A model generated the notes under the pieces. The model saw nothing but the letters and a program-made list of their open reading frames with translations, was not told the origin of the DNA and ran no database searches. This document shows, piece after piece, positions 54,066 through 63,589 of a stretch of 64,000 nucleotides of DNA (positions are counted from its first letter, which is position 1; each line of letters starts with the position of its first letter). Made by a program: the position numbers and the translations under genes. The DNA is from Salarchaeum sp. JOR-1 (GTDB taxonomy: Archaea > Halobacteriota > Halobacteria > Halobacteriales > Halobacteriaceae). Where the stretch lies: positions 2,232,001 through 2,296,000 of the forward strand of contig NZ_CP042241.1 of assembly GCF_007833275.1 (NCBI RefSeq). The letters run 5' to 3'.

Positions 54066-54140
54066 GCCGAACACATCCGCTCCTCGCCGAACACCCCACC
54101 CCACACCCCCACCCCCAACGACATAATAAACTACCAAAAT
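54066..54140 (+). repeat. Left arm of a long diverged inverted repeat
   Basis: Positions 54080-54113 are the exact reverse complement of 56226-56259 (34 bp). Allowing three mismatches the match extends from 54066 to 56273. Inward, 54118-54137 matches 56200-56220 with three mismatches, and further similarity (GAGTTAT, GGGGACTGG, GTGGTGGGGT elements) continues to about 54.25 kb on the left and back to about 56.05 kb on the right. The arms enclose about 2.2 kb. Confidence 0.8.
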
Positions 54141-56199: not shown

Positions 56200-56273
56200 G
56201 TTGGTGGTGTATTGTGTCGTGGGGTGGTGGGGGTGTGGGGTGGGGTGTTCGGCGAGGAGTGGGTGTGTTTGGC
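56200..56273 (-). repeat. Right arm of the long diverged inverted repeat
   Basis: The exact 34-bp core is 56226-56259, reverse complement of 54080-54113. Towards the inside, 56200-56220 also matches 54118-54137 with three differences. Outside 56273 similarity stops. A further G+T-rich stretch runs from here to about 56350. Confidence 0.8.
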
Positions 56274-59037: not shown

Positions 59038-60015
59038 TCAGCTACCCACCGCTGAAGCGGTGGGCTTGTCGGTGGACTCCCGTTCTGCCGACACAGGCGT
59101 GTCGGACGCCACTTCAGTAGCGTTCACGGTCATTATCCCCGACTTCAGGGCGTACTGACAGAACGCCCCTCCAGCGAGGGGCTTCTGCCCTCGCTGGAGT
59201 CTCAGCGCCAGTTTCCGGGCTACGTTTTTCGCCGCGTTGTAATCGGCGTTCACCGAGTACGAACAGTCCAAGCAGGCGAAACGTTGCCCGTCGCGGTTTT
59301 CTTCGAGGGTACAGCCACACTTCGAGCATTGCTGGCTCGTGTAGGACGGTTCGACTGTCTCAACCACAATGCCGTGCTCGTCGGCTTTATACGCGACTTG
59401 GTCCTGCAACGCACGGAACGTCCACTGCTGGAATTTCTTGCCGTCGCTAATGCGCTCTCGAATCTGCTCCAAATCCTCGAACGCGATGTGCGTACAGCCA
59501 TGGCGTTTGGCCTCTGCAATAATTTCTTTAGAACACCGATGGAGGGAGTCTTCGCTCCACCGTCCGAACCTGTCACCGATACGCTGGTAGGTCAAGTGGG
59601 CGCTTCGCGTGCCGGTCTGTTGGAGGCTGGCTCGCCGTTTCTCGAACTCGCGGCGTTGATGATTGAGGTAGTCAGCGTTACCGACGAACCTGCCCGTTGA
59701 GGTCACGGCGATGTGGTCGTCAACGTTGCAGTCCACGCCAAGGACTCTCGAATCCTCGGCTTTCTCAGGACTGGCAACGTCGAGTTCCCGTTCCATCGCG
59801 GCGTGCAGGTAGAACTCGTCGGCTTTGCTGTCGTAGTGGACAGTACTCGTACTGAACGAGTAGTCGTCGTTCAGCAGGTACTCGCCGTGTGGTGTGCCTT
59901 CGGGGTTGTCGGGCAGATCGTATTCGCATTCGACTCTGCCGGTGACAGTGGCGAGACTCACCTTGTCGCGGTAGTAGGTAGCGGCTCGCTTGTCGTAGAC
60001 GATGCTGAACGTATC
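59038..60015 (-). pseudogene. tnpB: N-terminally truncated tnpB (copy 1)
   Basis: The RuvC part of a TnpB is intact: GVDCNVDDHIAV, HIAFEDLEQIRERI with the RuvC-II Glu, YTSQQCSKCGCTLEENRDGQ zinc finger with a later CLDC, and NADYNAAKNVA with the last Asp. About 90-100 N-terminal residues are missing; at 60015 the frame runs into the right end of the IS element at 60016, whose bases supply a meaningless MNLNIPTLG start. TnpB is an RNA-guided endonuclease of IS605-family elements. Its 3' end overlaps the hairpin at 59045-59064. Confidence 0.85.
59045..59064 (-). ncRNA. Right-end hairpin / probable omega-RNA 3' scaffold of tnpB copy 1
   Basis: CCCACCGC (59045-59052), TGAA, GCGGTGGG (59057-59064): an 8-bp perfect hairpin inside the last codons of tnpB copy 1. 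In IS605-family elements the guide RNA overlaps the tnpB 3' end and finishes with such an end hairpin. Presence is seen; RNA is inferred. Confidence 0.5.
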
Positions 60016-60075
60016 TTGACCTCCTCCCACCCGTGAACGGGTGGGATTCCCAAGCGTTGGGATATTAAGGTTCAC
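60016..60075 (-). ncRNA. Probable omega-RNA scaffold at the right end of the IS
   Basis: From the tnpB stop region to the terminal TCAA the reverse strand holds an inner dyad (CCCAACGC.TTGGG region, 60048-60060) and the end hairpin CCCACCCG-TTCA-CGGGTGGG (60026-60045). In TnpB systems the RNA scaffold ends at the element boundary and the next 16-20 nt outside form the guide; here that is 59996-60015, inside tnpB copy 1. The transcript is inferred. Confidence 0.45.
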
Positions 60076-61334
60076 GGAACGACCTGTTCTTGTGGGGCGA
60101 CTTGCCCCGTGGATTTGTCGAACAGGCGTACCGATGGCTGAGCCAAGCAGCCGTTACTCCTATCCTGTGAGGGACTCGGAGTTACCGTCGCTCGCATATT
60201 CTCCGCCGCGTTCAGGTCGCTATTGGCGACCAACTCGCAATTCTCACAGACGTACAGCCCACGCTCAACACGATTCGAGTCAGCTTCTGTCCCACACTCA
60301 CAGCAGGTTTTCGATGTTTTCAGATCGGCTTCATCCACACGGTCTACGTCGATACCGCGCTCTTGGGCTTTGTACTCGATGTGACTGAGAAGCGTCTCAA
60401 AGGCCCAGTCGTGGAGACGTTTGTTGCCGTGTCTCCCCCAGTCTTCATCGTTACGGATGTTCTTTGGATGACCGACTGCTATCGTCCCAATATCACGGGC
60501 GGCACATTGCTCGACGATGTCTTTCGACACCGCATGCAGGAAATGGTCTTGTCGCCGGGATTTCTTCTGTCTTACCCACTCTGCGTGATCGCTCGGCCCG
60601 TTCTCACCGTCCGTGTCGTATTCTTGCTGGCGGAAGTAGTGGGCGTCTTCTTTCAGGGCATTGCCCGGATACAGCAGTGTCTCGTCACCGACAGAGACAG
60701 CCGCCGTGTTGCAGATGCCGAGGTCGATACCGGCTGTTTTCTCACCAGGAGTATCGGCTGTCTCGATCCGGCGTTTGCAGACGAAGTGGAGTTCCCACTC
60801 GTCGCCAGTCCAGACAGCACGCACCGTCTGGACGGTTTCGACAGCGTCGAGTGTCTGCTCGTCTATTTGGAGCGTGTACTCACAGAGGATGTAGTCTGGG
60901 GCGTAGCGCGACTCTTTCATGTTCGTGCCTTTCGAGAGCCGGACACGGTTGTACTGGGTGTCGAGCTTGAAGCCCTGATTTTTCCACGTCACGGTCGAGC
61001 GTGGGTGGTCGTCGCCGTGTTTGCGGTAGCCGGGTGGGTTCGCGTCCGGGTCGTCCTGTTCGTACCACGAGACGAACGCCTCACCGAGTTCCTGAAGAAC
61101 TCGTTGACTGGATTGTGAGTGCAAATCCGCATAGCGTTCGTGGGATTTGAGGTACGCACAGAGTTCGTCGGCGTCTGGAATGTGGTCGATAGCGTTCCAG
61201 ACTCGTTGAATCGTCCACCGCCCGACGTTCCACAATTTCGACGCGGCAAAGCCATGCGAATCGAGGTCGCCACCGACTTGCGAATGGTTACGGATACTCG
61301 CTTTGAGTGTCCGAGTGACGACCTGATTCGACAT
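60072..61334 (-). CDS. tnpB: TnpB RNA-guided nuclease, IS605 family (copy 2)
   Basis: A 420-residue TnpB: RuvC-I Asp in AGIDLGICNTAAV, zinc finger SKTCCECGTEADSN with CENC, and RuvC-III Asp in NSDLNAAENM. At the RuvC-II position the sequence is TIAVGHPKNIR, lacking the usual Glu of IxxEDL. Some TnpB groups are known to have a displaced catalytic acid, so loss of activity should not be assumed. ATG 61334 touches a perfect palindrome. Intact length for the family. No IS200-type tnpA nearby. Confidence 0.9.
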   Translation of the reverse strand: MSNQVVTRTLKASIRNHSQVGGDLDSHGFAASKLWNVGRWTIQRVWNAIDHIPDADELCAYLKSHERYADLHSQSSQRVLQELGEAFVSWYEQDDPDANPPGYRKHGDDHPRSTVTWKNQGFKLDTQYNRVRLSKGTNMKESRYAPDYILCEYTLQIDEQTLDAVETVQTVRAVWTGDEWELHFVCKRRIETADTPGEKTAGIDLGICNTAAVSVGDETLLYPGNALKEDAHYFRQQEYDTDGENGPSDHAEWVRQKKSRRQDHFLHAVSKDIVEQCAARDIGTIAVGHPKNIRNDEDWGRHGNKRLHDWAFETLLSHIEYKAQERGIDVDRVDEADLKTSKTCCECGTEADSNRVERGLYVCENCELVANSDLNAAENMRATVTPSPSQDRSNGCLAQPSVRLFDKSTGQVAPQEQVVP

Positions 61335-61362
61335 ATGTAAGCACAGTATTTGTGCTTACATA
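61334..61362. promoter_or_regulatory. Perfect palindrome at the tnpB copy 2 start
   Basis: TATGTAAGCACA (61334-61345), GTATT, TGTGCTTACATA (61351-61362): 12-bp perfect arms directly upstream of and including the start codon region. It could be an operator limiting tnpB expression or an RNA hairpin over the start. It is distinct from the left-end transposition hairpin at 61440. Confidence 0.6.
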
Positions 61363-61560
61363 AGCGTTGGACATCTCGACGTGGAATATCCAGCCGTGGC
61401 TACGAGCGTGGAGAGATTCCCAATTGTCGGCTTCATCCACACCCGTGAACAGGTGGGCTTTCGCCTCGCTACCGCCGTAAACTTACCAATATGGGAACTT
61501 GGCGGGGTGGGAGGGTTTCATGTGAGTTCAGAACGTGTTCGCGGAGTCTGGATACGCTCG

Positions 61561-62779: not shown

Positions 62780-63589
62780 ATGACCGACCTCGGCGAACTT
62801 GGACTCTCCAGCTACGAAGGGAAGGTTTACCGCACTCTTTTGGTGACTGGTGCAGCGACAGCATCTGACCTGTCCGATGCCAGCGAGGTACCTAAAGGCC
62901 GAATTTACGATGTCCTCAACAGTCTCAACGCTCACCAACTCATCCGCACCAAAGCGACTGATCCGACCCGATATGTCGCAGAATCACCTGAGACCGCGGG
63001 TTGACAGGCTCCTCGACGAGCGACTGCTGAACTCCAACAGGAATGGGGCCGGTATCGTGACGTAGCTAACTCTGTCCGTTCGAACCTCCTTCCGACCCTG
63101 CCGTCTGACGGGAGCTTCTGGCTTGGAACACTCGGCAGTGAGGAAATGCAAACTGCGCTTGAAGAGCATATACGGACAGCAACACAGTCAATTCATGCCA
63201 CGGTTGGGCCGCCCTACGAGTTTGCTCCGTGGGAGCCCCTCAAACAGGAGGTTGATGCGTTTTTTGATGGAGCAGAGCCAGATATTTCCGTATCGTTGCT
63301 AGTCAGCGAGCAGATTCTCGAAACGGTCCCCGAGACACTCTTCGACGTGGCAGAGGAACACGCAGCAGAGGTGCGAATCAGGGTTCTACCCGAGATCCCA
63401 GTGTCCTTTGACGTGATCGACCAGACAGTAACGACCATTGACATCCCACATCCCCAGATGAGCGCAGACCGTATCGGCATTGTTGCGGTAAACGACAGCG
63501 ACATTGTCGGCGAATTCGAACGCCAGTTTCAGGAGCTGTGGCATGAAGGCGTGCCCCTCCCCGAATTGCTCTACCGTCTCGACGAGTAA
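62780..63589 (+). pseudogene. TrmB-family transcriptional regulator with two compensating frameshifts
   Basis: ATG 62780 opens LGELGLSSYEGKVYRTLLV and SEVPKGRIYDVLNSLNAHQL, a TrmB winged helix. After YVAESPETA one extra G (run at 62998-63000) shifts the frame and makes TGA at 63002-63004; VDRLLDER continues in the second frame; one missing A near 63023 restores the first frame, giving TAELQQEWGRYRDVANS and the C-terminal effector domain to GLU-rich LLYRLDE at 63589. TrmB proteins regulate sugar metabolism. Interrupted by a single short shifted segment, so either a young pseudogene or a sequencing artefact. Confidence 0.8.

What the first reader, a model, noticed from the sequence alone, without database searches (positions are those of the whole stretch)
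59996..61486. tnpB element whose predicted guide lies inside another tnpB
The IS at 60016-61486 ends in TCAA next to tnpB copy 1. In TnpB systems the guide is the sequence just outside the right end; here that is 59996-60015, part of the copy 1 coding sequence. An RNA-protein complex from this element would therefore be directed at intact relatives of tnpB copy 1, potentially a weapon against a competing element family.
Basis: partly seen in the sequence, partly recalled or inferred. Interest (0 to 1): 0.62.

Follow-up and report, generated by a model that had tools for sequence, protein, structure and literature searches.

The report
TnpB element inside another tnpB remnant
A common archaeal jumping gene carrying a TnpB gene landed in another jumping gene's tnpB, so its predicted guide RNA copies that gene; this follows automatically from where it landed, and there is little sign that it serves as a weapon.

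Summary
A tnpB-only IS200/IS605-type element (minus strand, 61476-60016) ends in TCAA. The next 20 bases outside (60015-59996), where a TnpB guide is read, are in-frame codons of a second tnpB fragment (copy 1). The element has TTAC at its left end (61480-61477), a full-length TnpB and a full Rfam sot0042 omegaRNA scaffold. Copy 1 is only a 3' remnant: codons 1-105 of about 430 are missing and the left flank is unrelated DNA.

An intact copy-1 relative with the expected empty site, TTAC plus the guide (32 bases identical), exists in one haloarchaeal genome, almost certainly Natronomonas pharaonis. Among 49 distinct relative sites only 2 carry TTAC, and only that one also matches the guide exactly. 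The host genome has no other exact match. The interrupted junction occurs in 1 of 391 genomes, the host's own.

The canonical RuvC-II Glu is Gly or Ser throughout the family, but an invariant alternative Glu sits just before the zinc finger (the published Ealt arrangement), so a live nuclease is plausible.

Best reading: ordinary insertion, with a guide that homes to the element's own vacated site. A weapon against a rival element is not excluded but unsupported.

The parts
61477..61480 (-). TTAC target tetranucleotide at the left end (expected TAM motif)
   Evidence: TTAC at this place in 20 of 22 relatives with a recognisable left end
60016..61476 (-). tnpB-only IS200/IS605-type (IS1341-like) element, 'copy 2'
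60072..61334 (-). tnpB copy 2, 420 aa (P0001): D204, D373 conserved; canonical RuvC-II Glu replaced by G288; invariant E335 before the zinc finger
60025..60187 (-). omegaRNA scaffold, Rfam sot0042 (RF02656), full model 1-174, 117.6 bits
   Evidence: folds with z = -4.56
60016..60019 (-). TCAA right-end motif
59996..60015 (-). predicted guide (first 20 nt outside the right end), = codons of copy 1
   Evidence: matches an intact relative next to TTAC
59038..60015 (-). tnpB copy 1, 3' remnant (residues 106-430 of an intact relative; canonical RuvC-II Glu present); a different TnpB family, about 27% identical to copy 2
59045..59064 (-). terminal hairpin near the right end of the copy 1 element; similarity to relatives stops at about 59037

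Best explanation
A tnpB-only IS200/IS605-type element of a family widespread in haloarchaea was inserted, by a Y1 transposase supplied in trans, just 3' of a TTAC in the coding sequence of another element's tnpB (copy 1). Because the omegaRNA is read through the right end into whatever lies outside, its guide became a piece of copy 1. Later the 5' part of copy 1 was lost on the left side, most simply by recombination between two copies of the element or by a deletion ending at its left end. If TnpB is active, the RNP would cut the vacated site (TTAC + guide), and also any incoming copy-1 relative that happens to carry TTAC there, and would copy the element in by repair. Shown: the element anatomy, the junction, the TTAC-bearing empty site in a relative, and the conserved omegaRNA and RuvC residues. 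Inferred: expression, nuclease activity, the TAM, insertion in trans and the deletion mechanism.
For: Exact junction: copy-1 homology begins at the first base after TCAA. A homologous empty site reads TTAC|GATACGTTCAGCATCG... in an open 438-codon tnpB frame (L127), 32 bases identical before the first mismatch. TTAC left ends are the family rule (20 of 22). The omegaRNA family match covers the full model. The TnpB frame is intact with conserved D204, E335 and D373. The host genome has one Y1 transposase with an intact 133-codon frame. Published mechanism: TnpB cuts the TTGAT-flanked donor joint and is proposed to restore the element by repair (PMC8612924, passages); TnpB drives its insertion sequence through plasmid populations (PMC11870625, abstract). 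omegaRNAs of this Rfam family are expressed in Halobacterium salinarum (PMC12558985, passages).
Against: The left flank is not copy 1, so a simple insertion does not explain the present arrangement without a second event. No allele of copy 1 with TTAC was found in the host's own genus: the one other genome of that genus in the calls, G025, had no match to the site pattern. The host's second family copy (L064) is preceded by CTAC, so TTAC may not be strict. No RNA or nuclease data exist. The structure prediction was unusable.
Confidence: 0.83

Rival explanations
1. Anti-element weapon: being lodged in copy 1 is selected because the RNP destroys or converts competing copy-1 elements that enter the cell.
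For: The guide matches copy-1 relatives: 3 of 49 distinct sites have all 25 bases. One of them has TTAC (L127). Cutting of ectopic sites with TAM and guide match was proposed for TnpB in general (PMC8612924, passage). An archaeal TnpB tolerates changes at the two outer TAM positions (PMC11043419, passage), so NTAC sites might be weak targets.
Against: 47 of 49 relative sites lack TTAC. There is no exact target in the host genome. The interrupted junction is in no other genome of 391. No other examined flank of the family lies in a tnpB of the three kinds tested: 1 of 43 flanks, the window's own.
Confidence: 0.06
2. Nuclease-dead TnpB acting as an RNA-guided binder or repressor of its target site (TldR-like).
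For: The canonical RuvC-II Glu is Gly in 47 and Ser in 4 of 51 family rows; HMMER aligns it with the Glu of a Cas12f chain.
Against: An invariant alternative Glu (E335, 50 of 51 rows; the other row is a gap) lies just before the zinc finger, exactly six residues before CxxC in the relatives without a 2-aa insertion. This is the published Ealt arrangement of Fanzors and some TnpBs (PMC10711439, passages and section 23). D204 (51 of 51) and D373 (49 of 51, two gaps) are kept. The element keeps its transposon ends.
Confidence: 0.08
3. The junction arose by rearrangement, not insertion: copy 1 was joined to the right end by a deletion, so the guide is an accident of that event.
For: Only the right side of the element abuts copy 1; the left flank is unrelated.
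Against: The break falls exactly after TCAA, and in a relative the bases before it are TTAC, which is the insertion target. A random deletion would rarely meet both.
Confidence: 0.08

Closest known systems
IS1341-type (tnpB-only) members of the IS200/IS605 family in haloarchaea with sot/omegaRNAs (RF02656)
   Same: tnpB-only organisation, TTAC left end, TCAA right end, full sot0042 scaffold overlapping the 3' end of tnpB
   Different: The insertion site happens to be another tnpB, and one side of that target has been lost
ISDra2 TnpB (Deinococcus), the tested model of the peel, paste and copy mechanism
   Same: Guide taken from outside the right end; TAM equals the target motif; RuvC nuclease plus zinc finger
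   Different: ISDra2 uses TTGAT; here TTAC (inferred). The catalytic Glu is at the alternative position (Ealt). No tnpA in the element
Ealt-type TnpBs and Fanzors (Yoon et al. 2023)
   Same: Canonical RuvC-II Glu lost and a Glu placed directly before the zinc finger; DxG motif with a hydrophobic residue (DLG), as in the published non-Fanzor Ealt clade
   Different: 23 of 51 family rows, the window's protein included, have two extra residues between this Glu and the zinc finger

Membership tests
IS200/IS605-family tnpB-only element | TnpB protein | tested here: met
   NF040570 guided_TnpB 175 bits (cut-off 100); Pfam OrfB_IS605 and Cas12f1-like_TNB above their cut-offs
IS200/IS605-family tnpB-only element | Tetranucleotide target (TTAC) next to the left end | tested here: met
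   TTAC at 61480-61477; 20 of 22 relatives with a recognisable left end
IS200/IS605-family tnpB-only element | Right end with subterminal hairpin and TCAA | tested here: met
   Hairpin and TCAA at 60016; the same in relatives. The regex required TCAA, so its count of 21 is not a test
IS200/IS605-family tnpB-only element | Mobility by a Y1 transposase in trans | tested here: inconclusive
   One Y1 transposase gene in the host genome; compatibility with this element's ends not tested
TnpB-omegaRNA RNA-guided nuclease | omegaRNA overlapping the 3' end of tnpB | tested here: met
   Rfam RF02656, full model
TnpB-omegaRNA RNA-guided nuclease | RuvC D-E-D residues | tested here: inconclusive
   D204 and D373 present; canonical Glu absent; alternative Glu E335 invariant. 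Active-site geometry not modelled (mean pLDDT 34.8)
TnpB-omegaRNA RNA-guided nuclease | RNA-guided DNA cleavage | not testable with these tools
   Needs biochemistry
Element-against-element weapon | Targets with motif and guide match in co-resident rivals | tested here: not met
   No exact target in the host genome; 1 of 49 relative sites fully matches
Ealt TnpB | Glu six residues before the CxxC zinc finger and no canonical Glu | tested here: inconclusive
   Canonical Glu absent in 51 of 51 rows. Spacing is six in the family rows without the 2-aa insertion but eight in P0001

The most novel reading that the evidence does not exclude
By landing in a rival element's tnpB the element has been reprogrammed into a site-specific drive against that rival family. 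When a copy-1 element with TTAC at this codon enters, the RNP cuts its tnpB and repair copies this element in, inactivating the rival's nuclease and spreading this element through the rival's copies.
Probability: 0.1. Interest if true: 0.6.

Novelty: new member of a known kind. Interest (0 to 1): 0.27.

Why it matters
It gives a clean natural case in which one TnpB's guide is another TnpB's gene, with a matching empty site in a haloarchaeal genome (very probably a cultured strain), so ectopic homing between element families can be tested directly. If such homing occurs, RNA-guided elements could suppress or colonise one another. As it stands the case is explained by ordinary insertion.

Tried and rejected
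Rejected: (a) that no intact relative carries the motif. An early set of relatives showed only NTAC with N not T, but the class-wide pattern search found two TTAC sites. (b) That the TnpB is plainly dead for lack of the RuvC-II Glu: the loss is family-wide and an alternative Glu is invariant. (c) That the element family prefers tnpB targets: 1 of 43 flanks, the window's own, against three TnpB proteins only; other TnpB families were not used. (d) That the left flank is the 5' part of copy 1: no similarity. (e) A conserved hairpin at the tnpB start: a 12-bp palindrome in the window, at most 6 bp in 32 relatives.

Led nowhere: AlphaFold model of P0001 alone, mean pLDDT 34.8, discarded. Viral contigs with P0001 or its alignment gave no relative; with copy 1, one relative with GTAC; one viral contig with the motif pattern is unrelated beyond the pattern. 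The flanking lipoprotein region is absent from the other genome of the genus. Two relatives match only to about the end of that gene, so there is no empty site for the left flank. Phage collection: no match. Fanzor paper PMC10432273 (passages): the searched words for a rearranged site were not in it. Literature searches for TnpB competition or nested insertion listed nothing on this arrangement; that covers only this open-licence library, and listings and abstracts were all I saw of those results.

Limits of counts: the flank of only 8 of 45 near matches (up to 3 mismatches) was read; the only one bearing TCAA was the own site, and none of the other 7 had TTAC. The family alignment kept tblastn hits of at least 50% identity and 300 residues, 51 distinct rows including P0001. 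For one search, 79 loci were examined, 11 had no site within 4 mismatches, and the rest gave 49 distinct sites.

Full report
What is there. The window is haloarchaeal: its relatives lie in haloarchaeal genomes and plasmids. On the minus strand a tnpB-only element runs from 61476 to 60016. It follows TTAC (61480-61477), encodes a 420-aa TnpB (61334-60072), contains a full match to the sot0042 omegaRNA family at 60187-60025 (117.6 bits, model 1-174 of 174), and ends in a hairpin and TCAA (60019-60016). The right-end RNA folds far better than shuffles (z = -4.56). RF02656 derives from Halobacterium salinarum sense overlapping transcripts, which are expressed and are regarded as omegaRNAs (PMC12558985, passages).

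The junction. The 20 bases after TCAA are 60015-59996 and are in-frame codons of a second, different tnpB (P0002). Homology of this copy 1 to other genomes starts at its first base. Intact relatives are about 430 aa; residues 106-430 remain here. The missing 5' part was not found in the window or, apart from a 43-base match elsewhere, in the rest of the genome. The left flank resembles nothing in copy 1. So the element sits at the edge of a 3' remnant, not inside an intact gene.

The empty site. In most relatives of copy 1 the base-for-base equivalent of the junction reads NTAC followed by a GAYACN-type sequence. A class-wide pattern search over 391 genomes gave 26 places in 22 genomes; two are TTAC. 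L127 (G112) has TTAC and the guide, 32 bases identical before the first mismatch, in an open 438-codon tnpB frame. L140 (G047) has TTAC with one mismatch in the first 16. Pooling the loci (79 examined, 49 distinct sites within 4 mismatches): GTAC 29, CTAC 7, ATAC 7, CTAT 2, TTAC 2, ATAT 1, CCGT 1; all 25 guide bases match in 3 sites (one each of TTAC, CTAC, GTAC). TTAC arises where a His codon before the Tyr is CAT (sequence of L127); most relatives have GAG, GAA or CAC there, so its scarcity needs no special cause (inference). TTAC + 12 nt of guide occurs in 1 of 391 genomes, G112. G112 is almost certainly Natronomonas pharaonis DSM 2160: its contig 2 carries the copy-2 relative at the same coordinates as plasmid PL131. 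That genome also holds two relatives of this element at 90-91% protein identity.

Does the guide have targets now? In the host genome the only exact 16-base match is the site itself, which is preceded by TCAA and therefore lacks the TTAC motif. The interrupted junction (TCAA before the degenerate site) occurs in no other genome of 391. None of 42 other flanks of family members matched the three TnpB proteins tested. So nothing indicates that the arrangement is recurrent, spreading or selected.

Is the nuclease alive? HMMER aligns G288 with the RuvC-II Glu of a Cas12f chain (that this Glu is catalytic is recalled). In 51 family rows this position is Gly (47) or Ser (4). RuvC-I D204 is present in 51 of 51, RuvC-III D373 in 49 with two gaps, and E335, just before the zinc finger, in 50 with one gap. 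In the family rows lacking a two-residue insertion, E335 stands exactly six residues before CxxC, as in the Ealt arrangement described for Fanzors and a clade of TnpBs (PMC10711439, passages and section 23). 23 of 51 rows, the window's included, have two extra residues in between. I conclude that activity is likely; a structural check failed.

How it most likely works. The established picture is that TnpB cuts the donor joint left by excision, using a motif equal to the insertion target and a guide read from outside the right end, and that repair restores the element; the same authors note that ectopic sites with motif and matching guide could also receive it (PMC8612924, passages). Gene-drive behaviour in plasmids has been reported (PMC11870625, abstract only). 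An archaeal TnpB is relaxed at the outer motif positions but then needs a full guide match (PMC11043419, passages), so CTAC and GTAC sites with a perfect guide (2 of 49) might be weak targets. On this picture the guide here is simply a record of where the element landed. Loss of the left side of copy 1 with retention of TTAC is most simply recombination between two element copies or a deletion ending at the left end (inference).

Verdict. The sequence observation is real and well supported after correction of the left end and of copy 1's status. The weapon interpretation adds an adaptive purpose that the evidence does not require; one real target exists outside the host, so it is not excluded.

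Noticed in passing
61334-61362 (-): A perfect 12-bp palindrome with a 5-nt loop at the tnpB start codon; relatives have at most 6 bp there, so it is not conserved.
   Followed up: yes
L178 (G000:C2:1274129-1274476): The host genome's only Y1 transposase match (133 codons), followed downstream by a 426-codon open frame that may be a TnpB: possibly a complete tnpA-tnpB element and a helper for the tnpB-only ones.
   Followed up: partly
60072-61334 and family: A haloarchaeal TnpB family with the catalytic Glu at the alternative position; 23 of 51 rows have two extra residues between it and the zinc finger, which the published search pattern (exactly six) would miss.
   Followed up: partly
59038-60075 (-): A 345-aa open frame starts (GTG) inside the element's right end and runs in frame into the copy 1 remnant; probably chance.
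   Followed up: no
62780-63589 (+): A TrmB-like helix-turn-helix gene that appears split over two frames (62780-63004 and 63146-63589), perhaps a pseudogene.
   Followed up: no
L064 (G000:C2:1509909-1511380): The host's second, 59% identical family copy is preceded by CTAC instead of TTAC.
   Followed up: partly
54066-54116 and 56223-56273: A 51-nt inverted repeat, 92% complementary, in C- and A-rich DNA.
   Followed up: no
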